The translations under genes were made by a program, and so were the position numbers. From assembly GCA_011800805.1 (NCBI GenBank), contig MPNW01000031.1, forward strand, positions 193,925-257,924: a stretch of DNA of 64,000 nt, given 5' to 3'. Source of the DNA: Hirudo medicinalis. Its lineage: Eukaryota > Annelida > Clitellata > Hirudinida > Hirudinidae. Below the pieces are notes generated by a model. That model made no database searches and was not told the DNA's origin. It saw only the letters and a program-made list of their open reading frames with translations. Of this stretch, positions 7,934 to 63,959 are shown one piece after another (the first letter of the stretch is position 1; every line of letters starts with the position of its first letter).

Positions 7934-10512
7934 TCAGCTAGATGGGAGGTGCAGGTTCCGAGAGAGAATGGACCGGACGTCATTGACAAACCTAAGTGCA
8001 TCCAGCATTGGGAGTATGTTCAATAAAGCTGTATCGGTAGGATCCTGAAACCAAGATGAGATTGGGATGGCATTGTCTGCAAGGAAAGTGAAACCATTTA
8101 TGACCGATTATCGTGCGCATCACTTAAAACAAACTGCTTATCAAGGTCAATACAAACAAACACAATATCATAATATAGCACAATTAATTCGAAATAAATT
8201 AAGCCATCCACTTGGAAAAGACTTGTAGGCGCCGGGAGAGTTGTCTAAAATGAAGACGCTGGAAAGGTCCGAGCTGACTACCGAGAGATCTTTCGTGTAA
8301 CTGACAAACTCGAGTTGGCAATGCTGGGACAAAATGCAAACAAATGCTCCTCTTATTACATGCAAACGATGTAGTTCAATGTAATTAAAATTAGATTCAA
8401 TCAAACCTGTCTGAAAAACCTCCTTTTAAGGATGCCCCTGTTACAATCAAGCTTATCTGCTACAGCCGAGCCATAGATTTCCATGCTTGCTGTAAAGACA
8501 ACCAGGTCATACCACTGACTGACCTAGAGGAACGGGTATTTTCATCACTACCTCATTATCATAAATAATTCCCATCAATGAGATATATTGTTGCATTCCA
8601 GATCCCATTCATTGACATTAACTATGTTAATATTCACTGCTAATAATCTTAATGATTATCGTAAACAAACAATTTTATTAACTGGCGAGTTCAATTAGGC
8701 CCACGTAAAAGGTTAGAAAATCAAACATCAGCTCAAACAATTAGGAAGGACATGGATATATTCAAATAGATATCCATTGGTGTGCAAGTTAGCTCAGAGG
8801 GTTATGTAAATACACCTAATCATTATGATTATCATCATCAATCCATTCAAGAACATTTCAATCAGTACGATATTTTAATGAATGTGGTGCTCCATGTTGT
8901 CCAGTTATGACACCACAGGCCTTCGAGAAATCCGAATAAAGCCACTAACCACATCGAGAAAAAAATCAACATGAGGTCGTTTGTGGACGAAAAATCTGAC
9001 AGGGTGTCGGTCTATCACCACCTGAAGAAGGATCAATGGAATAACCAATGAATAACTAATTAATTTTTTGAATAACAAAGACATGAATTAATCATTTAAC
9101 AATGCATTATTTATCTCATTCAGGTTATTATCAGTTTTACTTTGAGTCATCCTTAAAATCTCAAGCATGTAAACACTCTGTTGACTTTAAGATAGTGGTC
9201 AAACATGTTGTTGTCTGATATTTTATGTTAATTGATGCAAATAATAATAATTAACTTATAATTAAGACCAAATACAATTCATCCCATATCCTGGAAAATC
9301 ATAACAACTTCACCTTTAGTATAAAATCGGGGGGAGTCCCTGGCTTGACAGTTGGTCGTAGTACCCCGTCATGGTGCGAGTGAATGAGTGTTTCATCAAG
9401 ATCCAGCACCAGCGTCTTCCTCTTCACCCTACCTGTTCATCAAAGGCAATAGTGAAATAGTAATTATAAGAATTAGTGCATTAATGTAAATGCAGTTCAT
9501 TTATCTAGAGCCATATGCTTAGCATCAGAGGTGCTTCTTGTTAATTTATATGGCGCTCTTTCCCAAGGGCGCTTGCGGCAGAGCGGGTTGGGTTTTGAAC
9601 ACGACACATTATTTCTGTTGCCATTACCACCATATGCAGGAACACAACCCATTCGGCCAACCTGCACTCGATGTTCGAATTTCAACCATAAATCTAGATG
9701 AAATCCAAATTGTAAGCAAATTGATACTAACTCAATCTGTTTCTATGGATGTAGGACATAGGCATGATTGGATACTTGACAGTCTGGTGCTGCATGGCCT
9801 GTCAAATGTTCTATTATTTACATTAATTTACATAAACAAACTAAATGGTTTACAAAGTGATATATTTTTTGTGTTAAACATGGCCAAAGTTTACCAAAAT
9901 CAACAGCAACTCTCACAATAAGGTATCATAAGGAAAAATAAATAATTACCCTACGCACGTGTTTAGTTAGTATTATTTTAGGGGACAATCTATCAATTAG
10001 GAGATCTTTTTATAAATTCATATATTTAACACTATTGATTAACACAAAACTAAAAGGATCTTGTTCGCAATAAAAACCTTTTTTTTTATTCTAGTGATCA
10101 TCTAAATGACAAACATCAAAACAGAACTATAAGCTAATTAATAAAGGAAAATAAGTGATAAAATGCTTTGACTTTAAAGAAGCAAATGCTTGTAAATGTT
10201 GCTTAGCAAAAGTCACTATAAATATAAAATATTTCAAATCGAAATTAAAATTAATGAGATCAAAACAAAAAGATTCAAGAATCAAGGGTTTCCAGGCTAC
10301 AAAAACACATACTTATGGTATTTCGCAAAATAAACCACTTGTTTCTAATTTTTAGACTAAACATGTTTTGTTAATAAATTTTAAAGATATAAATGATCAA
10401 AGCGATGTTGAACAGAATCAAATAAACCAACCGCCCTGACTTGCTGACGCATGCAGTAGCAGAGAAAACTCCACATTCTACAGATCGTAAGTATTAATCC
10501 ATCCAATCCCAT
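7934..10512 (-). CDS. CTDNEP1: CTD nuclear envelope phosphatase 1 (Dullard)
   Basis: A HAD-superfamily serine/threonine phosphatase of the nuclear envelope and ER. In other animals it dephosphorylates lipin and dampens BMP signalling. Exons read leftward: first exon about 10388-10512, then 9314-9432, 8950-9021, 8407-8523, 8212-8323 and 7934-8076. The catalytic DxDx(T/V) motif is in [19 protein letters not shown]. Also seen are [46 protein letters not shown] and the C-terminal [13 protein letters not shown]. Exon 1 encodes the membrane-anchoring N-terminus ([16 protein letters not shown]). A short exon for the usual LSPVSRxRL linker should lie between 9433 and 10388 but was not found. The first-exon donor is also unclear: no GT follows and an in-frame stop comes soon. 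Confidence 0.88.
9497..9680 (-). repeat. tRNA-derived SINE copy in CTDNEP1 intron 1
   Basis: Inverted copy of the same SINE as at 55279-55460. It keeps the tggcgctcttt tail block, the tRNA-like B-box region (ttttgaacacgacac on this strand) and the A-box complement near 9655. The open frames over this interval on both strands (9497-9685, 9538-9921) come from the repeat and are not genes. Confidence 0.75.
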
Positions 10513-26100: not shown

Positions 26101-27391
26101 ATTTGCATTTTTATCTTATAAACTAATTCTGTAATTTCATTTCTTGACGTACTGAAGCCATATCGCTGACTGTGTAGGTCTTGTTGGTTTTTGAGTCATA
26201 AAGAGAAAATGGAGGAGATTGGAAAGACGGAATTCCAGGCGGAATCTTGCCAATCAGACTAAAGGGCATTGATCCACTTTCCAGGAATATGTAAGCTGCC
26301 ACAGAGGCTCCGACTATGATCATGATGTTACGTGCTAAAAATGGAGTTGATTATTAATAACCAGTGATAAACCGAGTTAGGTAGAGTGATTAATGTCAAT
26401 AAATGAACAAATGTGACGTCGATACATTTTGGACTCAATCTCATTTTGAGCTGCAACTCAACTCAGATTATTAAAAAGGGAATAGTTGCAGGCCTAGTTG
26501 GAGAAGTTGGAATAATGAAGATGAAAGGATTGTTAATTGTTTACGAACCTGTTCCCACAAGCCAAACTATCTGACTAAGGATTTTCATGGGAAGGGAGGT
26601 TGCTGGTTTAGACCACACCTTCAGTTCCTTGACTTTCTATGATGATGACGACGATACTGAAGATGATATTGATACTGATGATGGTTACAATGCCTTAAAC
26701 TTACCCTGAATAGGACTATGAAGAATATGCACACCACGCCCATCACGAAGTCCCACAACCTTGAACATGCGACAAGCAACACTCCGATCATCGAAGTCAA
26801 TATTGTAATCATTTTCTGCATCCTCATCGTTACTTACCGAGTCTCGGGTATTTTCTGAATGGTCTGAATGAGTTGCGGAATGAAATCTCTTGACACATTT
26901 TTCAGGCCCCACCATTTCTGTATGACAAAAGAAAATTTTGTTCTAATGCTCTCAATTATGATAAATCGAAAAGCTAACCTTGACTTGGGTCATGCCGATT
27001 GTGATGGCAGCAGCTGTGGTGAAGGCCTTCATGACAGGAAACGATATGAAATCACAGAATGCCCCTGATGAAGGAGACATCAAAAGCACTCATCTCTAAT
27101 TCTTATATCATTACAATTATCACCGCTCACCGAACCCAATGATATACATAATGAGCTGAACTATCCCAGTGAAAAACCCCAGGACGACAGCATAGGTCGG
27201 GTCGCCATCAACTGGATTCTTGCCGTAAGAGGCAGTCAAGATGGACATGATGGCCGATGGGCCTAGAGTAATGTCTTTGGATCCTCCGAAAACTGCGTAC
27301 ACGAAGCTCCAATGAAGGCGGAATAAAGTCCGTACTGTCAAACAAATGGTTTACATTATTATGTAATAATTCTAATGACGATTATAATAAT

Positions 27392-31398: not shown

Positions 31399-34052
31399 TT
31401 AAAGAGGAAATATTAATAAGTTTGTAAGTATCACTTCGTCATCGGTTCCTCTCATCCATTTAAGAACAATACAAGAGATTCTGGTATCGTTCACCAACAT
31501 GGTCTCTGAACATCCCCCAAAAGTATCAATTTCCCTCGTGTCTAAGCATTGAACGTTGTTGTTTTCAATCGATTGTATCTTGTATTGATGACCTATGACT
31601 AAAGAAACCTCCTTCAAACAGTAATTTTTGTTGATACCAGTTTCTAAAGTTATGCTACTAATATTTTGTTCATCAGGGAACAAAAATATAATGGTGTGGT
31701 TGGTCTCTATACCCTTTATTTTGAAATGAAAGTAATGCCCAGGTATGTAGAACTGCCACAAATCGTCTGAGATGTTGCTGAAGATGGCAGCCAGGGGATT
31801 TACAGCATCTTGGATCTTAGATGTTTCATACTGAACCTTGACATTTTCGTGCTTATCAGCATCAAACATTCTGACAAAAACATAGAGCCAATTTTTAATT
31901 ACAAATGTATTTATCATTCTTTTAAAATTATAACTCCCCTACCTATCTTTGAGCTTGTTCTCCTGCAAAAAGTTGAAGGATGACTTAAGGCCAAAGTGTT
32001 GGAAGAGAGCAGGAATATGGAAATATTTTTCATCTTGCCCCATATTTTTGAGGAAGTAAACAATCAACCAATCAACAGGCTGTTCATCATAGTAAAATGC
32101 TAGAAATGCTGCCAACTTTTCAAGATCTTCTGATCGAAAAAGCTTTCCTATGAATCCAAGTTCTGAGAAATCAAGTATCGTCCATCTGGCTTTTATTTTC
32201 ATGTCTCGTGCTGGTCCTTTGCGATCGTTGATTCTCTTTAGCAAAAGATCTTTCGCAAATGAAATGCTGACATTTGAGGGCATTACCAAATAAATTTCTT
32301 GAAGAATCTGCCTGAAATCTCTGAGATTTTCCTTAAAATCCACTGCCTTGATGTACCGTTCAATGGATTCTGCAAACCCATATACTGTAAGAACATCATC
32401 TTCAAGCTGAAGGTGGTACTGACCCAAAGAGCTACAATATCTGAAAAGCATGGAACAAAATAGGTTAGTTAGTACTGTTTTGTATATTCTTAATACATCT
32501 GAAAGTAAATGACTTAAAAAACCATTTTACAAACATCAATTAGTCCAACAGAATAATTGTTTTTATAAACCATCCATGTCAAATAATCCAATAACTTTGA
32601 AAAATATTTGTTAAACTCATTCACCTGAACAAGAAGATGAAATCTGAAACCTGCTTGGCCCTCCAGCGAACTCTCTCGGGAGGATCGTTGAAATTTCGTT
32701 TGAGATCATCAAGGCTTGGATAAAAATCTGGTTTAACTCGAACAATATGGAAAAAACCACTCTCCAGAGAGTTTGGAAATGTTGAAATTAATTCTTTTTC
32801 CATGAGAAAGTTGTAGTTGTGGTCAACATCACAGAGGAAGACAACACAGATGATTTTTGTTTTGTCTATGGCTGATGATTTAGCTTCAAGCTCATGCAAG
32901 GTCTTTACCAAGTATGTTGAATTGATGACTCTCTTTATGGACGGTATACCGATCGTCAGGAATGCTAAAATCAAAGAAAGGAAACATTTCATTTTAGCTT
33001 CTCAACACCAACCTACGTAAATGCCAAAATTAAGTCATTCAAAACAGTAAAATGTGTGAGTTATTAAAGTCTGTATTAAAGTTATGGCTTCCAAGACTAA
33101 AGGCCAAGCATTTTTAAGAATCTTGGTTAAATGGTATAAAATTAAAAATTAATATTTCTATCTTTACACCTTATCAAAATATGAATCGGACAATGGTAAG
33201 CATAAGAAAAAAAGAAACCTTTGCCTTTTCTCCTGTTGCCAGTTTGAATTGCATATTTATGTACATCATTTCCAAATTGCCAGTTCAGGTCTGGACTTTC
33301 ATTGAAGTAATTCTGTACCACAAAAACATTGCTTAAAACTTACCCAATAGAAAATAGATTAATAATTGATTGCCAATCTAACAGTTGATTAAACATTAGC
33401 TCAGAGGACTGGCAAGTGTAATGGTCAGAAATATATTTAACAGGCCATCATAAAATTCGATTAAGTATGTAGTACTTGAAAAAGCTTTTCTTAAATAGAT
33501 GACAAAATAAATTTGGTTTCAGTTAGTTTGGTTCAAGAATATTTGAATCAACAAAAATCATCTCATTTTGGCCAGACATAACAAACTGGATATTTTCAAG
33601 ATGCATGGAACATCATTGTTAATTAATTCAATACTAACAACTACTGGTTCATTCTCAAGCTCTTTATAGGTTACATTGAGGCAGGCTTTTGGATAGAGTC
33701 TTGAACTACCTAATTTACACAAACACAACTATTCATCTACTAGCATTATTAATACATATTAAACAGTTTTATCAATAGATATAGTTTGAACACTCTGAAA
33801 TGTAATGAGCATATTGATCATTTGTGGATTGAGTAATATCGTCATTACACATTGTGCCTTTCGAGGTATTTGATTTTGATAAATTGTAAAATGATGATTA
33901 AAATGGTAACCTTTGTCAGTGTAAACTTTGTATTTGTGGCTATATCTATGTGACAGCGTAAGAAATACTACAGACCAAATCACACACTTTAAAATTTGCC
34001 ATCTTCTCTTAAAAGAAAATCGTACAAAATTAATTAACAGCCTAACTATCAT
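31399..34052 (-). CDS. MGAT4: Alpha-1,3-mannosyl-glycoprotein 4-beta-N-acetylglucosaminyltransferase (GnT-IV family), 5 exons
   Basis: A Golgi type II membrane enzyme that adds the beta-1,4 GlcNAc branch to the alpha-1,3 mannose arm of N-glycans. Exons read leftward: 33849-34052, 33219-33312, 32625-32964, 31943-32440, 31399-31870. The phases agree and give 535 aa, the usual family length. The chosen start (ATG at 34050-34052) gives a basic cytosolic segment followed by one membrane span (WQILKCVIWSVVFLTLSHRY). Catalytic-domain motifs: LTIGIPSIKR, NDPPERVRWRAKQVSDF, the metal-binding QLEDDVL, and ILDFSELGFIGKLF with PVDWLIVYFL. The paralogue (A, B, C or D) cannot be decided by eye. The gene is divergent from LIN7, with 304 bp between the two start codons. 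Confidence 0.92.
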
Positions 34053-34356: not shown

Positions 34357-35899
34357 ATGTCTAATGCAGGTGAACCGTTGTCTCTCGCGAAAGGTTAGTT
34401 CAATTTTCTTTTGAGTTTATTGGGATATTGTCGAGAAGCATTTATTTATTTTTTAAAATAATTTTTGCCAAGATGTTCAGCGAGCGATCGAGCTTTTAGA
34501 TGTTCTTCAGAGGAGTAAGTCTCATTCTCATTTGGTAAAGACCCTTAACTAGTAACTAGAATTTTGAATTAAATAGTTTTAGAATTATTATATTTAATAT
34601 AATTGATATGTAACACTTTTTATAAACGAATTTGGACTGACGAACTATACTTACGTCAATTATATTTAAATATTGCTCATGCAGCTGGAAACTTTCAAAA
34701 TTCCAAACTAGCAGACCTACAGAGAGTGCTGCAAAGTGATTTCTTCAATGCTGTTCGTGAAGTTTATGAACACGTATATGAAACTGTTGAGATGCAAGGG
34801 AGTCCAGAAGTTAGAGCCAATGCCACAGCTAAAGTATGTAAAGTGATGCTATTGGAAATTTGCATTTTTTGTTTGTAAATTGACCGAATAACTGCCATGT
34901 TGTAAAAATATCTATTATTAACAATCATCTTGATTAGTAATCACTCTTTAAAGAAAATACTCTGAGCATATGAATGTGAAGATGATTAAGGAATTTTCCT
35001 TTCTTTGTTCCAATGTACAACACTAAACATTCATTGGGAAAGCAAATGTTCTAAATAGACCTATCAAATAAAGTAAAATTTTATTTTGTTTTCCTAATCA
35101 GGCCACAGTTGCTGCATTTGCAGCCAGTGAGGGCCATGCTCATCCAAGAGTAGTTGAACTGTTGAAGACAGAGGAAGGCCTTGGATTCAATGTGATGGGT
35201 GGAAAAGAACAGAACTCTCCAATATACATTTCCAGAATCATTCCAGGAGGTGTGGCTGAGCGGCAAGGCAACCTCAAAAGGGGTGATCAGTTGCTTTCGG
35301 TCAATGGAGTGGTGAGTCAACTACATGCATTATTACATGCAATTTTGACATTTTTAGTTTTGCATAAGAATGAAATAATTAAAGTATCAGTGTTATTAGA
35401 CACTACAACTTTTAGTTATTCAATGTTAAATAAACTGGCCCAATAGTCAACCATAACACATTCCACAGAGCTATTGAATGCTTTTTATGCACAACAAACG
35501 CATCGTATTAAACAAATATGACAAATTGCGAACCACACTAAAATAACAATAAATGATGCTCATATTTCAGAGCGTGGAAGGGGAACCTCACGAGAGGGCC
35601 GTCGAACTTTTGAAGGCTGCGCAAGGTCTGTTTGGAAACACGGTCGTTCAAATCGACCAACATTCACACTTTGTCAACGTTTTTGCCTTAGTTATTAGTG
35701 CCAACAACATATATAGTATTACTTCAAAATGTAAAATAATAATATATTAATCAAATAATTATATCATATATACTGTATCAGTACCATTGCAATGTCACTT
35801 ACAGGCACTGTAAAACTGGTAGTGAGGTACACACCAAGGGTCCTAGAAGACATTGAAGCAAGATTTGACAGGAAACATGCCAAGACGAGGTTGACGTAG
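34357..35899 (+). CDS. LIN7: LIN-7 / Veli / MALS scaffold protein (L27 + PDZ), 6 exons
   Basis: A small adaptor that joins CASK/LIN-2 and X11/LIN-10 through its L27 domain and binds channel or receptor C-termini through its PDZ domain at synapses and epithelial junctions. Exons: 34357-34393, 34473-34514, 34685-34833, 35102-35311, 35571-35625, 35805-35899, giving 195 aa against about 197 in vertebrate LIN7C. L27: [34 protein letters not shown]. The linker [20 protein letters not shown] is nearly invariant. The PDZ domain carries the carboxylate-binding loop GLGFNVMGG, then [32 protein letters not shown] and the end [13 protein letters not shown]. Conservation is very high, so the call is secure. 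Confidence 0.96.
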
Positions 35900-46000: not shown

Positions 46001-46902
46001 ATTCAACAATTGTAACTTATTATCATTTTCAGAAATTAATTTGTCTTGAAATAATTTTTTTTTTAAAGAGTTTAAAATATTTTCTGAAATGTTTCATATC
46101 CAGTTCGGTTGCTGCGGTGCCGTCGATCCCGGTGATTATTATTACAGTCTTTGGTACAACCGATCCAACCATGCCATCACCAAAGTGCCGCCATCTTGCT
46201 GTTTTCCGTTCGATGATAATAGTGACTCAACTTGGCCACCGGAACTTGGCCATTGGCTAAAAGAATTTCAAAGCTGTCAATCAGAAGCAGCTGCATATCA
46301 CAAAAATAGAGGGGAGGGGTTTCCTCGTAGCAAAGAAGGCCCATCATTTCTTAAAACTCAGGTTCATGCTTTGGGGGCATGGAATATAGCCCCTTACCCA
46401 TTCTGTCATTTTGTCGTTCTCTATGTATGTTATGTGAACGCTTGATTATATGGCCTTTAACGATGATAATAATGAATTGTCAGTATAAGGCAGACATACA
46501 TATACTAATGTAATTAATAATTGCAGCATCAACATCGCCATTAATATTTTTGACTTTTTATTTCCTTTAATCTGATTATTTAATTTATTTAATCTTTATT
46601 TTACATAAATTGATAATATTTGTGCAGGGATGCAAAGAGGCTTTGGTAACATTACTAGAGAAAAACGTCACGATCCTTATCGTGGCAGTAATCGTCATCG
46701 TTGTACTCCAGGCAAGTGGATTGAACAATTGAAAAATAAATAAATGAAAAATTTAATGAACGCCAGAATAATCCATGACATTGTTGTTCATTCTGAATCG
46801 CCGTTGTAGATATTAGATTTTATCCTCGCTTGTGCCCTCATGAAATATTTTCGAAGAAAGATGGAAAATTCCAACTGGTATGAAGACGACGATTTCGATT
46901 AA
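43057..46902 (+). CDS. Tetraspanin with a ~310-residue His/Gln/Pro-rich, Cys-cluster N-terminal extension, 8 exons
   Basis: Exons: 43057-43735, 43912-44219, 44762-44977, 45052-45126, 45508-45681, 46104-46361, 46628-46711, 46810-46902. The phases agree and give about 628 aa, over twice the normal tetraspanin length. Exon 1 is low-complexity (poly-His, poly-Asn, poly-Gln, poly-Pro). Exon 2 ends with a cysteine cluster (SSCCCKSCCCRCCSESCRRQ) directly before TM1 (FTRFFLIIPNLLFM). TM2: LIIAVGSCILVLGFLACCGA. TM3: TTFLLFIMVAEVTLGVMMS. The large loop holds FGCCG and PPSCC, and the TM4 exon begins GCKEAL. The start ATG is the first in frame after a stop at 42988, and no acceptor is needed upstream. 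Exon joins are well supported by phase. Intron 7 uses a GC donor. The Cys cluster could be palmitoylated (inference). Confidence 0.85.
45234..45430 (+). other. Extra EC2-like exon inside the tetraspanin intron 4
   Basis: After an acceptor (tttag) at 45229-45233, an open frame reads VILKPNKGHNVVKLEEVIF and ends with FDVISKYQDAVHQTLCCGE, then a stop at 45428-45430. The run of a helical segment into CCG is how tetraspanin large loops begin. The main gene model uses a different exon (45508-45681) for this part. This may be an alternative exon, a poison exon or a relic. Confidence 0.35.
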
Positions 46903-50748: not shown

Positions 50749-53700
50749 TTAAGCGTGCTTGTCTTTAAATCGTTTCCTCCGCCGTTCTAAAGCGAATTTT
50801 AACTTTCCTATGGGATCCTTCCTAATTTTAACGAATTGGTAGCATTTTCTGCTATTGGAACGCCTGCGGATGGAGCGTGGAGTCGTCGATAGAACACGAA
50901 CATCAACGCGATCCACAAGTTCTGGTTCGTTGCGTTTTTTATCGTTTCTAGCAGTCTTATTCTGCTTTGCATGTCCATCTACAACATGAATTTTCTCCCA
51001 AGAATCTGGTGGCATTGCTGTTGTTTGAGTTGAATTATAACTGCCAGAACTGTCTGCGACTTCCTGATGCTTTCGATTCTTCTTGTCCTTTGGACTTGAA
51101 TTTAGATTGTTTGAATTTGTGTTCGATGTCGCTCGCGTTTCTCCTTTGGAACGATTTTTGCGTTTCTTTCCTTCCCATGCGTAACCACTTAGTGCTCGAC
51201 CATTCTTTTGAAAACCAATGAGCCACGACGGGTTGGACACTGATCTAAACTCTGTGTAATAATCAGAAGACAGCATTTCGTAAAAGTAGCAGTATTTGCT
51301 GCTGCCGTCCATCTGGAACAGAAAAAAAAAAAATCAAGTCATTTGATTGAATAATAACAGGATCTACCTAATTACAAGTCAATTTATTTCCAAATGTAAG
51401 GAAACTGGAAACAGCTTCGGCAACAAATTACATTAAGTTAGAAAAACCAGCTCTGATGTAATGAAAATTATCGGTTAATTTTATTGTATGTAAGTCACAA
51501 GTTGTCTTAATAAGAATAGTTATTTTATTAAACTAAACGTTTGCATCATCACAAGACAAGAGATACTCTCAGTCTAAATGCATATAGATTATTCCGCAAT
51601 AGAATATCAATAGTTTATCTCGCTTCCAGTTCATCCAGGCAAAGGTGCTTCCACTTGGCTAACTAGTCGACCACAGGTGTGGAAATGAACATTTATCTTT
51701 AACCGAGTACAAGGAACATGTCTTAACGTCTGTCAGCGGCTCGATTTTTCAGCGGTGATGCAAAGAATTTCAAACGTCTCTACATTAGTATTCCAGCGAT
51801 GCACTGAATGGAAACCATTCTACTTATGTAGGTTACAGACTAATGAGTGCATCATGCTCTCATAGTTTTGGCCACTTCCGTCACCTTCCTTCTACACGTT
51901 TGGACGTGTGCAACGGCTTTTTATTTTATAATTATCCAGTAAATTTTGAAGTTAAACTTGCCAATTCAGTTTATAAATGTTATTTATTTATCGCATTCCT
52001 TCCTAAAATTTACAAAAAAAAAAAAATGGTTGCTACCGCTAAGAATGATGTAAATGCAGATTAAAAGCAATAGTTGCAATTAACCTAATATCGAATTATA
52101 ATAATTAATAACAATTAACCTACTATTAAAATTTAATCGCAACCTAAGCTAGAAATCATCAGCTTATGTAGAAAAACATATGTTGGACAAAAAAACGCAA
52201 CAAAAAAACATTCCTTAATATCGCCACACTACTCGAGTGATGGGCGATGATCGGTTGGCTCTCCAGCCATCAACTTCCATGGCGACGACATGTAAACAAT
52301 TTCGAGGGCATCGAATGACAAATATGAGCGATTTTAGGGCGCTCGGAATTCTTCGAATAGCGTGATGAAAATAAGATAGTGAAAAAGTGGAGAGGTATGT
52401 GATAATAATAATTATTACTGTTATTACAATATTACTTATTATATTTCTGTAATAATATATTTCTGCATTATTATTGTTATTAAAAAATAATAATAAATTT
52501 TGGTATATAAATTTTTGTAGCTACTACGGTTGGTAAAGCGTGCATCTGTTGTCAATGTTTTATTTATCGTGGTTCAATTCGTTCGTGTGGTAATGTGATT
52601 TACAAGCTTAATAATGATTTATAATGTCATATTACATTGAAATTCATAGTCTAAGAATCTTTTATATGATTTCACATTAATTAGAAAATATGATCTGCTG
52701 GAAATTGGTTTTATTATAATATGAAATTTAATCAATAATTAATCCCTAATGTTTTAATTATGTGGCTAATTATTGCTTGGTAATTTATATAGATACCTTG
52801 ACAACCAGTCTGCCCTTGTCGTTGAAACAGACAAAGTCGTTGCTATGGACGCTCTGAAGTCTTACCCTGCTGTCAATGTTTTTGCTCTCTGCTCTCATGT
52901 GGACTGTCCAGAAAAACAAGAAATCATTATGATAATAATGATTATCATAATTCACATTCTTTATCACAAGTTTTCATTTAATCATCATCATAATCACAAT
53001 TTCCAACATTTTCTCAAAATTATTCTTCTCTTTCGATGGCATTGGTTAGCGAAGTCATTAGAGACTTGTTTCTGAGGCTCCAGAGTTGGGGTCAAACCAG
53101 TGAATATTCATCTTACATAAAGTCATTGCTAGCTTACCTGTCCGAGAATTGACCGTAATCGAAAATCTATTTGGGGCTTATGAGGCTACATAAACCGATA
53201 TTTTCACCAAGATTTTATTGTGCTTACCGAAAGGACTATCAAAATCTCCTAGAGCATCGATCGTCTTGCCTCTGACACGCACGTTGAACTGGGAGCATCT
53301 GTTGAAGATGATGTAATGATCGGTTATGGCTGGCGAATCGTCATCTTCCCTTTTTCCGTCAATTTCGGTGATGATTTCTGCCATTCTCGCCAGACGCTTT
53401 AACAGAAGGTCCGAATAAGATTGCGTCTGCACTTCCTTGCCGTCGAAGATTTTAGATATTATCACTTGGGGTGTCAAGAAAGATTGGACCTTAACCCGAG
53501 AAAGGGAATTAGCGGAGGTCTCTTCGGAACCCAGAGAGAGTTTTGTACTGCTTTCAGTTGGACGAACACTTCCCTTCCTCAGAGGATTGGAGGATCGGTT
53601 CTGAAGAGCGTTGGTGTTATGCAGGAAAGGCTGAACAATTATTAATAAAAATAATTAAAACTTTATAATATTATTACGTCTATTTGCCAAATATTCGAAA

Positions 53701-55000: not shown

Positions 55001-55278
55001 CGAGGACGAAATTATTTGACGACCAGGTTGCAATAACACAGGAAAACGAGAAGCGACATCAATATTCCACTGGAGTGTCTTCGTGTCTCATCACCTTGAC
55101 GAAGAAAAGATTTTCAACTATGTCAACTTTCTGACAATATTTCGTCATGAAATGAATTATGCGTTAATATCTTATTTTATATAATGGCAAAAAACTCAAC
55201 TATACTCATGTTAGCTGTGACCATCCACTCGTCCATCCATCATCGGCTTGTACATTTATGTATTGTAAAAGCATTACT
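54199..55278. other. Spacer between FGF and the Ig cluster, with a (TTA)n tract
   Basis: No gene was recognised. A long run of ATT/TTA/GTT triplets fills about 54855-54998. The FGF promoter should be in the first few hundred bases. Confidence 0.45.
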
Positions 55279-55460
55279 TGTGCGGGTTGGCCGAATGGGT
55301 TACGTTCCTGCATACGGCGGTAATGGCAACAGTCGTAATGTGTCGTGTTCGAAACCCATCCTGCACTGCCACAAAGCGCCCTTGAGAAGGAGCGCTATAT
55401 AAATGGTTAACAAGAAGCGCCTCTGACGCTATGCATATGGCGCTATATAAATGAGCTACA
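55279..55460 (+). repeat. tRNA-derived SINE, best-preserved copy
   Basis: The head folds like a tRNA-Ser/Leu relative. GTGCGGG at 55280 pairs with cctgcac near 55360-55366. A perfect-looking A box (TGGCCGAATGG, 55288-55298) and B box (gttcgaaaccc, 55347-55357) are the internal RNA polymerase III promoter. The body ends in the block gcgctatataaat, which occurs twice. The copy ends about 14 bp from the terminal exon of the first Ig gene. Confidence 0.8.
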
Positions 55461-55473
55461 ACTACTTAGTCAT

Positions 55474-57179
55474 TCAACGATCGGACCCACCAGCGCCTCC
55501 AGTCGCATATTTAGTTGTGAGTTCCTCGACTTTATCTGTAGCAGCCTTTGTATTAACGTCTCCTCTATCATCGGGAGGGGGACCGGGTGCGTGCGGAGGA
55601 TCTGGGGTTGGCTCCTCATCTCTTCCTAAAACTGATCAGAGAAAAGTTTTAAATTTCTTGTCGATGTTCCTAAATTATAAGTTTCTGTCTATTGTGCAGT
55701 CGTGACGTTTATATTGATTGGTGGCGATCAAAATTAATCAATAACAAATCAAGATATCACTGAAGCATTCACGTCCGGCAGCTACTCGACGCCTGATATT
55801 TCCTGTGAACGATGCTACTTATTTTTAACGAAAAATTCTTAAACTAATGTTTCAAACTAAAAAAAAAGTAAAAAATAGAAAGAAAACTGAGCGACAAAAA
55901 ATAAAGTAACGCATAAACTCTTTAAAAAAATAAAAAATTTAAAACGACATTAAAATTGCACTGCTTTTGAAATGCCGGTTCACATTTAGCTCCATTTTGG
56001 AAATCTCGAGCAGGATCACGAAATCTCATTTTAAAATATTAACTAATATGATATAATAATGGATAACGGATTAAAAAATCTCGCATACCGTTTATGGCAA
56101 TAGTTTTCTTGTATTCTCTTGAGTATTCTCTACCTTTGATAGAAGTTTTAAGAGTCCACACGCATAAATAACTGGCTTCGCCTTGGTCGGGGGAATCTTT
56201 TGCCATTAAGGACAAGACATCTGAATCAGAAGTGCTTGTATCGGTTCTATCGTCTAATATTTGAAATGTGGCATCTGCGAGACTTAGGTAGCTCTCCATT
56301 TTTTCGAACGTACTCCAAAATTTGGCTGAACATTCCAGAACCACTTCGTCTCCGATATTTACTGTTGTTTTTTCGGCTTCCATTAACAGGTCAAATCCTA
56401 GGCGATAATTGTAAATTAATATCCTTACTGTCTCATTATTGAGTTGTAATTGGTTGTACTACATGACATCGCAGAAATTATATGTAAAAAAAAAGGTCAA
56501 ACATCAAAATAGCAAATTACAGAGCTTCTGTAACATCAGTATCATTAAATTGAGGAAATAAAAACAAATTCTATTGTTTCTTACCGCCCACAATGAGAGC
56601 GAGGTTAGAAGTTCCGCAATGGTAAGTGCCGCTACCACCAGATTTGCCATTACCCGGGCTTATTGTTATTGGCATAGTCACCTCGTTGTCGGCGAAAATC
56701 CATTTAGAGCAATTGAAGTATTTGTTAAGGTCGACTAACTCATTCGCATTTATTGGTATCAAAGTATCGTCTGCAAATTAAATGACTGCATAAACATTTT
56801 ATCTTCTAAACATGAATCCTCATTAAAAACTAAGCATAATGCACAATCTAACGTTATTTGAATATAACCTCCCATCAGTTTGGCATAGTGACTTTAACAA
56901 TTTTTAACCATGGTTTTAGAGGAATCTATAATTCTTCATAAGCATTCAAATCAATGACATAGGTATTCAACAGAATTTTATTAAACACTTCCACTAAATT
57001 TCCATTTCATACGCCTAGTAAAATTACGTCAGTCGAGACAATCTAAAAATCAATTTTTAGTCTCAGAAATTAGATTATTTCGCAAGTGCTTCAAAAGTTT
57101 AAAAACCTGTATTCTCCCCGATAAAGGTTACAAAAATACTCAAAAATTCAGCAAGAAGATTCGTTTGAGCAACTGACAT
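55474..57179 (-). CDS. Two-Ig-domain secreted protein, cluster member A, 4 exons
   Basis: Exons read leftward: 57107-57179, 56585-56770, 56089-56397, 55474-55625. The total is 720 nt, 239 aa, all introns phase 1. Exon 1 encodes a signal peptide (MSVAQTNLLAEFLSIFVTFI). Exon 2 is a short Ig-like unit: its first Cys is in FNCSKWIF and its second in GSGTYHCGTSNLALIVGG. Exon 3 is a longer Ig-like unit beginning TTVNIGDEVVLECSAKFW and closing SYLCVWTLKT. Exon 4 is an acidic, Pro-rich tail (DPPHAPGPPPDDRGD) with no hydrophobic end, so the protein should be soluble. Paralogous to the next two genes. The family is not recognised beyond the Ig fold; the role is unknown, and immune-type recognition is only a guess. 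Confidence 0.8.
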
Positions 57180-57610
57180 CGTGCCCAATAGTTTTAATTA
57201 TCATTCGCTTAATAGTTGAAGCCCCTCTCCAATTCCGACAGGCGCCCCACGCATTGTGACGGAAATCGTCTGGCATTCAAAAACAAGGGATGCACAAGCA
57301 ATATAAAATGACGATAAAAAAAAAGTTTTTTATTCGATTTTACTTGCATTTTGAATAAAAATTCTAAAAATAACCTTCAATATTTAAAAGTAATTTTATC
57401 TCTCTTTATTTATTCACATTGTAGAAAAGTTCGGCATTTAAAAGCAGATTTAACAAAATTACTTTATTGACTTTAATTATAAATAAAATTTCACGCCAAA
57501 TGAACCTAACATGTACATAACCTAACTTAATATCAAGACACATCCACTTCAACGGCTTCATTAGCAATTTTCAAATTTTAAATAATTATTAAATCATGTT
57601 GTTTTCTTCA

Positions 57611-57616
57611 TTTATT
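57611..57616 (-). promoter_or_regulatory. Polyadenylation signal of Ig cluster member B
   Basis: AATAAA on the minus strand only about 10 bp after the stop codon at 57626, implying a very short 3' UTR. The rest of 57180-57610 is the upstream region of member A, with no other feature seen. Confidence 0.5.
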
Positions 57617-57625
57617 CAAGTTAAG

Positions 57626-60600
57626 TCATTGACTGAAGCTGACAATCATTCCTATCACTGCAAGAATTTCATGAACTTGAAGGGTGTCAACAGATTCTTT
57701 GGCTCCTGTATGTTTAAAAAATCTATTATTAAATATAGGTTAGGGGCCGTCCTTAAATGACATCACTCTGTCTTGCTTTCATCTCTGCTCCCTCGTCATA
57801 AAATGTAAATGTAAAATACAGTACATTTATATAGCGCCATAAGCATAGCGTCAGAGACGCTTCTTGATAGCTATTTATGTAGAGCTTCTTCCAAAGGGCG
57901 CTTGTTGCAGTGTAAGCTGGGTTTCGAACATGATACTGTAGGATCGCTCATCCCTAAGCGGACGAGTGGGTTGCATAGGTCCATAGGCGGACGATAAGCA
58001 GCTATCGGAACATTGTAGTTCGTGTTGTAAATAAAGCTTGTAACACAGTCGCTACAAAATTGATGACCCCGACGGAAAAGTACAAATCTCTCGGCGGACC
58101 TCATCGACCTAGTGTTCGTCATCATTTGTCGTTGCCGCTACAATACATTACATTGCGACAGTTGCCATTTCCGCTGCATGCGGTTTTTAATTACTAATAA
58201 TTATTTATATTTATTTTATTTTTAATAATTATTTTAATTGTAGTAATTTTAATAATCTGGTAGCTCTTAATCAAATTTACCTCTTCTAAAAAATTAGCTT
58301 CAAATGATTATATGACCTCATTATTAAACTTACATAATGTTACATCGGTTTGCAATAAAACTAATTATATTTTACCATTACTTCAAACACGTCCTACTAC
58401 CCTAAGAAGGTATTTTGAAGTAATTGTAATCGTCGGACTAGGTTATATTTTAATTACTCTAACCTGATGCGGGCGCTGGAAAAATATTTTGATAAAATCA
58501 TTGATGTAATCAAAATCTAGGATAAAATCCAAATTAAAGGTTTATAGCTAATCTTTTAAACAGTTTACATTGTGTTCCATTTCGTTTATTTATTTATTAA
58601 TATATTTACACAGACTGAAGGTCGTCAAGAGTGTCTGGAAAGCAAGTAGGGTAGACCGGGGTTAAATGCAACAGGGGTCGGTTGCAACATATACATACAA
58701 GCGCTACACAATTTTAGCGTAAAATAAACTAGCCTAACTAATTGTTTTTATGTCTTTATAAACTAATTTGTTTTGTGAAAGATTAAAATATATTTTTGGC
58801 AGAAGGTTTTTTTGTATTCAATATTTTGAAGTAATAAAAAGTAATTTTTTGTGTTTTGATAACTTTTTTAATTTAGCGAACTATTTTGATTTAATTTAAT
58901 ATTTATTGCTGGCATAAATTGGATATGAAATTTAACTTGAAAATGCATCTATTTGTTTTGATGGAAATCAACGTGATCAAAGGAATTTGGCATCAAAAAG
59001 TCAATTGATGGCTCTGGGGTTGAAAGACCCCATTTGAACAAGCTACTGTTGATGCATTTTCTGAGATAGAGAATTTTACAAAAGCTTAAGTATGGGCTAC
59101 AATAATTTTGATTGAATCCATAAGTACAAATATGCGGCAACAAAACATGAATTTGTTTGCAACCAATCCCGGTCTCCCCTACAAATAAGCAAGAACAAGA
59201 ATGCATAAACAAAGTCGGTTTCAAAGCAGACAGTTAACTTATAGAATGGCAGATCCATTTCGTTAATAAATTAAGCTTTTAAATTATATGTGACTGGTCA
59301 GACTACATTACCAGTCTTCCAATTTGTGCTGTTGAATTTCTATATCTGATATGTTAGCAAACCTCTTTCTCCTTTTCCTGTCGTCTTTCCGGGGGCTGGA
59401 CCGGGTGCTAGTAATTCAGGGGAAAAATGTTAATTTTAATTAGTGTTGCAATAACTAACATACATTAGGATAAAATTAGATCGTGTTGAAGTTGTATATA
59501 TTTTTGTACGCATTGCTTTGATCTTCATTTAAATATGTCAAGAAATAAGGCCACGCGTAAAGATTTTCATTTAATTTCTATTAAAAAGTTGAGTTGCAAC
59601 ATAGTGTTTTATTTTATGAAGTGAGATTTCGTAATTTTAGTTTGATATTTATTTTAATTTTAGTTTGATATTTATTTTAATTTTAGTTTGATATTTATCC
59701 GTTTTTATTAATAGTTTTAAATTAAGCAATCAGTGATTTATCATATCATCTACAGCTTCTACTATATGCTTCGGGTAGATTCTTGCGAATTAGACTGCAG
59801 ATATGAAACAATTCAGAATATTAAATTACGTACCTTCGCCTTTAGGCTCTGTTAAATTAATAAAAAGTTAATTCATTGGGCAATTGTCCAAAAGAGAAAA
59901 ATTCCGTACTTACTCGGTTCGCTATCTTTATCTTTATCTTTACCTTTACCTTCATCTTTATCTTTTGGTTCTTCCGTTTTGTCAACTGGCAAATGGAAAA
60001 TAACTTGTCAAAATTAAACGTAATTTTTTATATCTTAAAAAAGGCCAACCTTTGACATGCATGGAAATGATTACTGCAAAATTCCTCTTGAAATCCTCAT
60101 CTCCGATGAAAACACTCAAGTTCCATTTGCAGTAATAAAAATCAGATCCGAAAGTCTGCGTCGTTCGATTCGAAATTACGTTTAACATCTCATCTTCGCC
60201 GATGTTTGTGTAATCGTTCCTCTGAGCAGTAAGCTTGTTGATCGTGTCTGACATGCTCATGTTGCTCTGAGTTTCTCCTTGTTTTTTCCACAGCGTCAGA
60301 GAACAATTCAGGGTCAGCGTTTCACCTTCGAGGGCTTCTTCAGTCCAATTTGATGACGTGGCAGTCTCGTATACTGCAAAGTGAGGCAATAATTTTTTAT
60401 GCTTGCAACAGTCGGGAGAAACGTTTAGCAATGTATTTATAACTATTATGAAATAATAAAACTGATTATAGTGCTTCAAAAGGTTCTCTTCCGCCATTGT
60501 TTTCCCAAATGGCTCCGTGCGACGAAATCCCTCCTAAATTGTGGCAACCTCTTTCGATTTTTTAAATTCCTTCCATTTGTTAATTGTTTTGAAGCTGGAA

Positions 60601-61061
60601 ATTTCTTTCCAAGGCTTGATTTCAACAAGAGCTTACAAACTTCTACAGTGGCCTTATAAAATTCCAGAACAATTAACGAATTCAGAATCTAACACTAGAT
60701 TAAAATGTGCTCGCGAGAATCGGCTGATGAATTCTCACCAGTCACCAGGATGGAAATGGTTGCAGCCCCGCATTTATAAGAGCCACTTTTAGGTCCAAAC
60801 ACAGAAGGCTCCAGAGCTAAAGGAATATCAACTGTGATTTCGTCACGAATCCAGTCGCCTTCACATTTGAAGTCATCGCGTACGCTCACTTCGTCCGATG
60901 TTATTTTTGGAAGAGAAGACGAACCTGGCAACACAATACCGTTTAAGAAAATCAGAAACTTCAAATTTCGTTGCCAGATTTGTATAACCTGTAAGATTTG
61001 TTAGTAAACCGAGGAAAAGATTAAAAACTTGATCCATGTCTTGGTTTGCTACCGCAGCCAT
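57626..61061 (-). CDS. Two-Ig-domain protein with Lys/Asp-rich linker and hydrophobic tail, cluster member B, 7 exons
   Basis: Exons read leftward: 60989-61061 (signal, MDQVFNLFLGLLTNLTG), 60739-60924 (short Ig unit: FKCEGDWIRDE, then KSGSYKCGAATISILVTG), 60050-60373 (long Ig unit: EGETLTLNCSLTLWKK, then SDFYYCKWNLSVF, several NxS/T sites), 59914-59985, 59834-59848, 59363-59407 and 57626-57705. All introns are phase 1; 795 nt, 264 aa. The linker exons encode repeats of Lys/Asp (KGKDKDKDKDSEP), a 15-nt microexon (PKGEG) and APGPAPGKTTGK. The last exon ends VHEILAVIGMIVSFSQ, a short hydrophobic terminus like a GPI-attachment signal (inference). Exon 1 and exon 2 have exactly the lengths of member A (73 and 186 nt). 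The last intron holds a SINE, an LTR-like insert and an inverted-repeat element. Confidence 0.8.
57805..58190 (-). repeat. SINE copy split by an LTR-like insertion
   Basis: SINE sequence on the minus strand occupies 57805-57936 and resumes at 58143-58190. The tail block (tttatatagcgccat) is at the low end, and the A-box side is beyond the insertion. It lies in the last intron of Ig member B. Confidence 0.7.
57937..58142. mobile_element. Small LTR-retrotransposon-like insertion (solo LTR or TRIM)
   Basis: The 206-bp insert begins TGTAGG and ends gctaca, and is flanked by the direct repeat ATAC (57933-57936, 58143-58146). It contains AATAAA at 58030-58035. A first gctaca at 58051-58056 is followed by aaattgatgaccccgacgg, which resembles the primer-site region after the left LTR of Ty3/gypsy elements. 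It is non-coding. Confidence 0.5.
58646..59181. mobile_element. 536-bp inverted-repeat (MITE-like) element
   Basis: The left end gtagggtagaccggggtt is repeated in inverted, slightly diverged form at the right end (gggattggttgc and ccggtctcccctac read on the other strand). Both ends continue into a shared ggttgcaac motif. No transposase is present. It sits in the last intron of Ig member B. The target duplication is unclear. Confidence 0.5.
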
Positions 61062-61624
61062 CTTAGCGTGCTATGGAATCCAACCTTCAACTAATGATAT
61101 CAATCTGACTAAAGACAAAATCGTAATCTTAAAATCTCCGGATTCCTCATCAGGAATTTGAAAAGTTTTGAAAAATAAGTTTGGATGACGATTAAGTGAT
61201 ACAGTTGTGACGTTCAGAAAAAAAATTTCTTTCATCTTTAAAAACTTTTTTCAAATATTAAATTACGGTGCAAAATAAAGTAAATTGAGAACAAACCTAT
61301 AAATTATAAATTCAGCCTCCAGAAAGTTAGGAGACATTTCGTAAGAATCTTACGAACACAATGAAGCTGATTTTTTTAAAAGTTTAACTCTGCTCTCTGA
61401 GATATATATAAGTATGTAAGTCAAGTCTTTTATTACAGAAGGCAAGAAGTATCAAATGATTTGAAGAAAATCATAATCAAATCACTTAACATAACATAAT
61501 AACATCAACTTAATTCTAATGAAAATTCTAATGAAAATGCAAGAAACCACTGGATCTGATTATTTTTATTTATTTGGTCATTTGATTCTCCTACGAAGCT
61601 TACGAACATCACCTCATTGTGTTC

Positions 61625-61735
61625 ACGCAGCATCTGTATTTGTATTTGTATTTAGCCGATCTTTTGAGTGCCTTTTGTATCCCCTACCCGAGGGCGCTCC
61701 CTGGCGGTGCAGGCTGGATTGCGAACACCGAAAAT
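61625..61735 (-). repeat. Truncated SINE copy between Ig members B and C
   Basis: Shares the gatcttttgagtgcct block and the gcgaacac B-box complement with the copy at 5820-6050, then stops. The remainder of 61062-62145 has no recognised coding exon apart from an unassigned open frame around 61920-62130. Confidence 0.6.
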
Positions 61736-62145
61736 GTATACGTGTGTTGTTCGTAATAAACTTTAGGATAAAAATGTCAGTTTAATTTTTGAGGTAACGT
61801 GTTTATTATCCAACTTAAATAAGTGCTTAACAAGCCATTATGTTTTAAAAATTAGAATATAAATTGAAATAAATGTTAATGGTTTGTCATTACGTAATAA
61901 GTTGGTGGAGCCGTTTGCAAAACGAAATAATATCAAATTTACAAGCATCGATTTTCATCTTTTGAAGATATTCGGAAACAATGGCAAGATGAACTTGTGG
62001 CATTGATATCCGCTATTCTTCAGGTAAAACCTTTGAAGATTAACAACCTGCACAACAACAACAATATTCGAAGCATCTTCACCTCATTAGAATTTGAATA
62101 TCATTGGCTTGTCGAGAAATTGACAACAAAATTTCACTAACTTTC

Positions 62146-63959
62146 TCAAAAGAGTCTGCTTTTAATGGTAAATGCCACCATCAAGATGTCAAACAAAGTT
62201 AGCAAAAAGTCAGGGGAGATTCCGGGATTCCCACTTAATGGATCTTGTGTTCCTATTCCGTTGTTGGATTAAGACTATATTAATTGCTTTATTAGCGAAA
62301 TAAACATTTATTCAAATATGTAGTTGGCTGATGATTAGCAAGGGTCACTTATTTTAGTTTATGGAAAGACTTTGGCTTCCTCCCAAAAGCTACGTATCTG
62401 CTATTAATTGAAAGCTAAATACTCCAGTCTAAATAAGTATACCAAAATAAATAATGAATTAGGTGATCATCAGGTTGAAGAATGAAATAATTTGAGTTAC
62501 GATTCTAAAATAATATTCACTTAATGCTACAATATTATAGTATTGTGTTAGGTTGTTGTCTAAAAATGCCATAAAAACTGAATAAATTGCTTTCATTGAG
62601 TTTACCTGGCTTAGGTGCACTTTCCACTGTAGGCTTTGGTTTTGGAACCTCTACCAAATTTTATTAAAATTTGAAATTTATTAAAATTGAAACTATTAGT
62701 TAATAACTAATATATTGAAATAGTTAATTTTTGTTAGGGAACAAATTCACCCTTAGCCGGCTTCTTTGCCTTGATATTGGTGGTGGTGGTGGTGGTGCTG
62801 CTGCTGGTTGTTGTGGCTGTTTCTGTCGTTGTTGCTCCTAGGATGGTTTGCGGCTTGGTAATTCCAGTAGTTAAGTCGAAATTTTCCGTTGCTCCGGTTT
62901 CATCCATATCTGAGAATAAGTTGCGTATATTTAAACATACGTATATACTACATATATATTATTTATATATACTTATTATAATAAGTATATTAGTATTATA
63001 TTATAGTATTAGTATATATAAGTATTATCATTGTAATATACTTATTATAATTATCATAATTATTAATAATTAAGCATCCACGCAATAACAACAGTTTTAT
63101 AATGGCATCCTTTTTAAACTGATCAAATTCGAGGTTGTGTTTCAGACACTCACTCTCAACGAGGAGCTTAATAGTCCGCGAAACGATCCAAGAGAACGTG
63201 AAATTCTCGAGGTGGGCATCTAATATTAACCGGCAAATAAATTTTTGATGCCCTTCTTTGTCAAGAATGTGTGAAGCTTCCAAAATTAAGTCGACTTGGC
63301 GGGGACTGGGGATGAGTTCTTCTCGTTCTTGTAAAATATAATTTGAAGAGTCCACAATACTCATGTTCGCTAACATAGTTAGGTTTCCGCTCCAAAAGGT
63401 CACAAAACATTTCAGGGTGACACTATCTCCTACCGTGACACCATCAATCCTGCTGGCTGTAAACGACAGATCTTGTTCTGAAAAGTTAGGTACATTAAAA
63501 ATAAAAGACTCGATCATGCTATTATTGTTTTATTGTTTGTTCTCTGGAGAATGTAAGAAGCACTTACTCGTAACGAGTACGTAAAGGAGGGAATTTTCGC
63601 ATTTATAATAGCCTGTTCCACCTGGTTCTTCTATCGATGATTTGCCAGTCATTGGCATTTTTTCTTCAATTAGACCGTTGTATTTCCATTCTTCAGCGCA
63701 TTCAACGTAGTTATGCAAATTGACTCTCTCACCTAGCCTTACCGGTATTATATCCTTGCCTTTAGACAAAATTAACTAGATAAAATTTGTTGTTTATTAT
63801 CTCAAATTTTTATTAGAATTCAGTTATATCGAAATATTAAATGATAAGATAATTGTTTCAGAATAGGAAAGTTATGTTCTAACCAGTGTAGTTTCCGGCA
63901 AGCGATATGAGAACGCTGAGCAAGTCCAACAGAGTGTCCGCGTAAGATTTGGTCACCAT
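62146..63959 (-). CDS. Two-Ig-domain protein with Thr-rich stalk and C-terminal hydrophobic segment, cluster member C, 6 exons
   Basis: Exons read leftward: 63884-63959 (signal, TLLDLLSVLISLAGNYTG), 63568-63759 (short Ig unit: VECAEEWKYN, then TGYYKCENSLLYVLVTS), 63154-63477 (long Ig unit: TVGDSVTLKCFVTFWSG, then KFICRLILDA), 62751-62909, 62606-62650 and 62146-62252. All introns are phase 1; 903 nt, 300 aa. Exon 4 is a mucin-like stalk with runs of Thr and Ser (TETATTTSSSTTTTTT). Exon 5 is Pro/Lys-rich (VPKPKPTVESAPKP). The last exon ends DFLLTLFDILMVAFTIKSRL, a membrane-spanning length with a basic end, so the protein is likely anchored. The long Ig exon is 324 nt, identical to member B. More copies could lie beyond 64000. 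Confidence 0.8.

What the first reader, a model, noticed from the sequence alone, without database searches (positions are those of the whole stretch)
55474..63959. Tandem cluster of three fast-diverging two-Ig-domain genes built from symmetric phase-1 exons
Three same-strand genes share one plan: signal exon, 186-192 nt short Ig-like exon, 309-324 nt long Ig-like exon, then linker or tail exons. Every one of the 15 introns is phase 1, so any exon can be duplicated, lost or swapped without breaking frame. Residues are poorly conserved apart from Cys, Trp and a few Gly/Tyr, although exon lengths match to the base (73/186 in A and B, 324 in B and C). That combination suits a lineage-specific recognition family such as allorecognition, immune or gamete proteins. 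The architecture is seen; the role is inference.
Basis: partly seen in the sequence, partly recalled or inferred. Interest (0 to 1): 0.8.

Follow-up and report, generated by a model that had tools for sequence, protein, structure and literature searches.

The report
Secreted two-Ig genes in an annelid
Three neighbouring genes in an annelid worm genome (probably a leech) encode small secreted-looking immunoglobulin-like proteins; they look like shortened relatives of a larger family of cell-surface Ig proteins whose job is not known.

Summary
The anatomy holds. Three minus-strand genes (A, B, C) each have a signal-like exon, a short Ig-like exon (186/186/192 nt), a long Ig-like exon (309/324/324 nt) and charged or Thr/Pro-rich tail exons. 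I placed 12 introns, not 15; all are phase 1 and GT-AG. Phase-1 Ig exons are usual in animals.

All 15 other genes read, and the partial one, have a third Ig exon; four show a membrane-type hydrophobic end. I found neither in A-C. Best reading: A-C are soluble, derived members of a membrane Ig family. One intronless member carries signal, short Ig, long Ig, third Ig and membrane segment in a row, as a copied spliced mRNA would.

The genome is an annelid's, probably a leech's. Database searches gave only near-identical counterparts (89-100%) from unnamed close relatives or another assembly. Recognition (immune, self, neural) is plausible but unproved: expression, polymorphism and selection could not be tested.

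The parts
57107..57179 (-). Gene A exon 1, signal-like, 73 nt, ends phase 1
   Evidence: best mean hydropathy over 10 residues 2.35
56585..56770 (-). Gene A exon 2, short Ig-like domain, 186 nt
   Evidence: E 2.2e-8 with a profile lacking A-C; fold model pLDDT 83
56089..56397 (-). Gene A exon 3, long Ig-like domain, 309 nt
   Evidence: E 2.5e-13; counterpart P0002, 105 of 114 residues identical, 16 of the 114 being intron-coded
55474..55625 (-). Gene A exon 4, acidic/proline-rich tail to TGA, 152 nt, no hydrophobic segment
60989..61061 (-). Gene B exon 1, signal-like, 73 nt
   Evidence: 2.04
60739..60924 (-). Gene B exon 2, short Ig-like domain, 186 nt
   Evidence: E 0.0035, the weakest of the three
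60050..60373 (-). Gene B exon 3, long Ig-like domain, 324 nt
   Evidence: E 2.9e-12; counterpart P0005, 104 of 114 identical
59914..59985 (-). Gene B exon 4, Lys/Asp-rich linker, 72 nt
59834..59848 (-). Gene B exon 5, 15-nt micro-exon (tentative)
   Evidence: splice sites and frame only
59340..59407 (-). Gene B exon 6, terminal exon to TAG, 68 nt (tentative)
63884..63959 (-). Gene C exon 1, signal-like, 76 nt
   Evidence: 2.37
63568..63759 (-). Gene C exon 2, short Ig-like domain, 192 nt
   Evidence: E 2.4e-7
63154..63477 (-). Gene C exon 3, long Ig-like domain, 324 nt
   Evidence: E 3.2e-16
62751..62909 (-). Gene C exon 4, Thr-rich linker, 159 nt
62535..62650 (-). Gene C exon 5 read through to a stop (45 nt if the splice site at 62606 is used instead; then the last exon is unknown)

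Best explanation
A, B and C are three tandem members of an Ig-superfamily gene family of this annelid. The other members have a signal peptide, short Ig, long Ig and a third Ig with extra cysteines; at least four of them also show a membrane helix or a hydrophobic C-terminus of the GPI-signal kind. A-C lack the third Ig and any such end that I could find, and so would be secreted two-Ig proteins. Shown: gene anatomy, family membership, no third Ig exon in the window. Inferred: secretion, loss rather than ancestral absence, and that they act outside the cell by binding a partner through the two most diverged domains, either as soluble binders or as competitors (decoys) of the membrane-bound members.
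Confidence: 0.6

Rival explanations
1. The family is an annelid immune or self/non-self recognition system; the membrane members are receptors and A-C are soluble recognition molecules or decoys.
For: Clustered and diverged, no distant homologue found; the first two domains are less alike than the third; A differs at 8 of 98 exon residues from its counterpart while D2 and D4, whose counterparts lie on contigs of the same length, differ at 0 of 71 and 0 of 50 (counted by eye).
Against: pN is below pS in all 40 pair-by-domain comparisons listed, so no sign of positive selection at that distance, where synonymous sites are near saturation. P0001 has only a few residues after its membrane segment, so no signalling motif there. 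D2 and D4 are almost unchanged. No polymorphism or expression data.
Confidence: 0.25
2. The family is an adhesion code, for instance neural, working like IgLON/DIP proteins (three Ig domains on a GPI anchor), with A-C as secreted modulators.
For: Three-Ig plan and GPI-like ends of some paralogues; the family profile matches IgLON5, neurotrimin, OPCML and NEGR1 over one stretch at E 6.3e-7 to 1.4e-6.
Against: The same profile matches CEA (1.7e-10), contactin-1 (2.4e-7) and CD166 (2.8e-7) better, so this is superfamily likeness. A-C have two Ig domains and no anchor found. Change in A (8 of 98) looks high for a wiring molecule (inference).
Confidence: 0.25
3. A-C are reproductive or gland proteins (sperm, cocoon, saliva) that diverge under sexual or host-related selection.
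For: Secreted-looking, short, charged or Thr-rich tails; counterparts of A and B at 92.1% and 91.2%.
Against: No tissue data; no match to a known protein in the searches run.
Confidence: 0.15
4. A-C are decaying remnants: partial duplicates of three-Ig genes that lost exons and are no longer used.
For: No third Ig or anchor; the exon of A differs at 8 of 98 residues and the adjoining intron, read in the same frame, at 1 of 16, similar rates on small numbers.
Against: Exons open, splice sites in place, pN below pS between A, B and C in 6 of 6 comparisons, open frames kept in the counterparts of A and B.
Confidence: 0.1

Closest known systems
IgLON / DIP / Dpr family
   Same: Paralogues here have three Ig domains and some a GPI-like C-terminus; Dprs have two and DIPs and IgLONs three Ig domains, and they are GPI-anchored (PMC10863630, passages read).
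   Different: A-C have no anchor found; the first domain is only about 60 residues; no specific similarity beyond the superfamily; about 20 strongly diverged clustered genes against five conserved mammalian IgLONs.
Hydractinia Alr (allorecognition complex) family
   Same: Clustered Ig family of tens of genes (41 members; PMC11999971, passages read).
   Different: Alr1 and Alr2 have a known self-recognition role; here no polymorphism or function is known, and A-C show no membrane part.
Molluscan FREPs
   Same: Diversified defence proteins of a lophotrochozoan (variability: PMC11999971 passages; secretion and one or two Ig domains are recalled).
   Different: No fibrinogen match in A-C (Pfam at E 1).
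CEACAM / CEA family
   Same: Best PDB profile match of the family (1e07, E 1.7e-10); a vertebrate family with anchored and secreted members (recalled).
   Different: The best stretch lies in the third Ig (query 182-231), which A-C lack; a different animal lineage.

Membership tests
Immunoglobulin superfamily | A conserved cysteine pair per domain, the second after an aromatic residue (Y-x-C) | tested here: met
   Short domain: C, W, Y and C invariant in the 13 of 18 read members that were aligned; E1, not among them, has His for Tyr. Long domain: both Cys invariant in 17 of 17 aligned, the residue two before the second Cys being aromatic in many, not all
Immunoglobulin superfamily | Ig fold of the short domain | tested here: inconclusive
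Immunoglobulin superfamily | Ig fold of the long domain | tested here: inconclusive
   Model pLDDT 44; PDB profile hits: T-cell receptor beta at E 0.0039 and 0.0078, but a zinc-finger protein scores better (0.0024), so near chance; Pfam Ig below cut-off for A and B, none for C
IgLON/DIP (Wirin) family | Three Ig domains and GPI anchor | tested here: not met
   For A-C: two Ig exons, no third among 1030 ORFs, tails not hydrophobic. Some paralogues may meet it
IgLON/DIP (Wirin) family | Orthology by sequence | tested here: inconclusive
   Profile hits at about E 1e-6, weaker than to CEA, contactin-1 and CD166; no tree made
Hydractinia-type allorecognition family | Allelic polymorphism that decides fusion or rejection | not testable with these tools
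   One genome at hand
Hydractinia-type allorecognition family | Transmembrane receptor | tested here: not met
   For A-C (hydropathy); met by hydropathy for C19/P0001 and D1
FREP | C-terminal fibrinogen domain | tested here: not met
   Pfam scan of A-C at E 1 lists no fibrinogen match

The most novel reading that the evidence does not exclude
The clusters form an annelid self/non-self or immune recognition complex of about 20 Ig genes, with membrane-bound three-Ig receptors and a local set of soluble two-Ig decoys (A-C), largely linked in one region of about a megabase, comparable in kind to the Hydractinia allorecognition complex.
Probability: 0.12. Interest if true: 0.8.

Novelty: new member of a known kind. 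Interest (0 to 1): 0.42.

Why it matters
The listings of my paper searches showed no description of such a family; these searches cover only open papers and were few. If it is a recognition system, it would give annelids a germline Ig receptor family with both anchored and soluble members, in a group that can be kept and bred. Even if it is adhesive or reproductive, it would show how a membrane Ig protein becomes a secreted one by losing symmetric exons.

Tried and rejected
Tunicate, arthropod, flatworm or cnidarian origin: rejected, as the mitochondrial COX1 piece reads best with AGA as Ser, AAA as Lys and TGA as Trp (which residues are conserved is recalled), the arthropod cuticle family PF00379 gave no hit (the tool warns that nothing rang anywhere, so this is weak), and the annelid erythrocruorin linker PF16915 gave six matches on two contigs. 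A test for tunicate cellulose synthase did not complete.

A membrane or third-Ig exon hidden in A-C: searched, none convincing; one search lists 17 hydrophobic runs on that strand between 54000 and 63150, for none of which I have support as an exon.

dN/dS: synonymous sites are saturated or near it between paralogues, so no selection test was possible.

Long-Ig structure: model unusable, not searched. Short against long domain profiles: no significant match.

RNA families in the window: none at gathering scores; tRNAs: none. The C690 hit (E 0.0136) was not counted. C344 and the second C135 member rest on search hits only.

Splice sites of the paralogues were sought in phase 1 only, so their phase is assumed, not shown; a third-Ig donor was not found for E1 and is doubtful for E2 and D6.

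Full report
What was checked. The window lies on contig C31 of a 133-Mb, 1557-contig genome. I rebuilt the three genes on the minus strand by hand from splice sites and open frames. A: 73/186/309/152 nt. B: 73/186/324/72/15/68 nt. C: 76/192/324/159 nt and a last exon read through to a stop ending at 62535, or a 45-nt exon with an unknown end. The exon-length matches it gave are right.

Phase 1 is ordinary. [quoted passage not shown] So symmetry alone does not point to recognition.

Family. Single-protein searches of the genome gave marginal hits among A, B, C and further places, the best A to D6 at E 2.7e-5. I fetched those regions and iterated profiles: 16 long-Ig and 15 short-Ig exons with E under 1e-5, none in shuffled or reversed ORFs. 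Because the iteration included A-C, I repeated it with A-C left out: they still rank first of 1030 window minus-strand ORFs. Members read: A-C; D1-D6 on C31:336-358k; E1-E3 on C841; F1-F3 on C1102; G1 on C1412 (no short exon found); one on C135; one on C19: 18 in all. Partial: a neighbour of G1 (G0). By search hits only: a second on C135 and one on C344. Seven contigs, 21 candidates.

Third Ig. Downstream of the long exon the others have a third exon type, 243-279 nt where a donor was found apart from E2 (327 nt, doubtful), sought in phase 1 only. The profile finds 14 such exons in the first set: one for each of the 13 genes D1-D6, E1-E3, F1-F3 and G1 (that of E1 in two pieces) and one for G0. 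C135 and C19 add one each. So 15 of 15 read genes outside the trio, and the partial one, have it; A-C have not: the best match in the window is E 1. Hydrophobic ends: P0001, the counterpart of C19, ends in a helix in one run with its Ig domains; D1, E3 and F2 have such ORFs downstream, not modelled by splicing. For the other ten first-set genes outside the window I did not settle the end.

Intronless copy. C19:49840-50860 holds signal, short Ig, long Ig, third Ig and membrane helix without introns, with two frame breaks in the third Ig. P0001 (341 residues, unnamed source) is unbroken; 251 of 281 residues are identical over the stretch before the breaks. The simplest origin is a copy of a spliced mRNA, so exons of this kind were once joined in this order; an old intronless state is not excluded. 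It says nothing direct about A-C transcripts.

Distribution. A profile of A-C alone found none of 5204 candidates at E 0.01. Wider profiles found 3 of 3730 candidates at E 0.01 and 4 of 218 at E 0.1, each the counterpart of one gene here: C19 89.3% (251 of 281), A 92.1% (105 of 114), E3 95.3% (82 of 86), F3 95.7% (110 of 115), B 91.2% (104 of 114), D2 100% (77 of 77), D4 98.3% (58 of 59). They come from unnamed close relatives or, in part, another assembly of the same species. Counterparts of A, F3, D2 and D4 lie on contigs of the same length (1,104,517), probably one contig, so several clusters may be linked. How many annelid genomes that database holds is unknown, so absence elsewhere is weak.

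Rates. Within the exons A differs at 8 of 98 residues from its counterpart, D2 at 0 of 71, D4 at 0 of 50 (by eye). A thus seems to change faster than these two. The intron beside A's exon, read in the same frame, differs at 1 of 16. Between paralogues pN is below pS in all 40 comparisons listed, but synonymous sites are near saturation. The first two domains are less alike (means 26.9% and 23.6%) than the third (34.6%) over 45 pairs of 10 genes; A-C, E1 and F2 were left out of these means and G1, C135 and C19 were not in the set, and the third exon of D6 was cut with a partial last codon.

Tree. Short plus long domains of 16 genes: A, B, C and D6 form a group with support 80; inside it the supports are 45 and 42. 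D6 has the third Ig. As all others have it, loss in the A-C line is the simplest account; with D6 inside the group, more than one loss is possible.

Organism. Mitochondrial code, no arthropod cuticle hit and six annelid erythrocruorin-linker matches make it an annelid. Leech is likely, not shown.

Function. I prefer secreted binders or decoys of a membrane Ig family. Immune or self recognition, neural adhesion and reproductive or gland roles are all open; none was tested.

Noticed in passing
window 5904-6049, 9573-9667, 55262-55453, 57824-57903: A dispersed repeat with a tRNA-like stretch (SINE-like, my reading), 74-88% complementary between copies on opposite strands; a likely further copy near C19:51385-51480 (by eye). 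No tRNA or Rfam match.
   Followed up: partly
L050 (G000:C19:49840-50860): Intronless family member with two frame breaks, while the counterpart P0001 is unbroken.
   Followed up: yes
G000:C459:20763-22199: COX1 with a 639-residue open frame and no stops, unlike the mitochondrial one; probably a bacterial contig in the assembly.
   Followed up: no
L049 (G000:C456:12202-13068): Mitochondrial COX1 fragment in a 112-kb scaffold, with one N followed by a repeated stretch of about 120 nt; looks like a misjoin.
   Followed up: no
window 50752-51333 (-), 34603-34875 (+), 1041-1382 (+), 31942-32526 (-), 27123-27350 (-), 46050-46442 (+): Ordinary neighbours by Pfam: FGF, L27 (lin-7-like), NAGLU, MGAT4, sulfate transporter; tetraspanin match below its cut-off.
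   Followed up: no
L036-L039, L042, L045: Third Ig exons share an extra W-x-C and C-x-C in 9 of the 10 rows that have this domain (C19, cut short there, lacks W-x-C; G1 and G0, lack it too); they may form a second disulphide.
   Followed up: no
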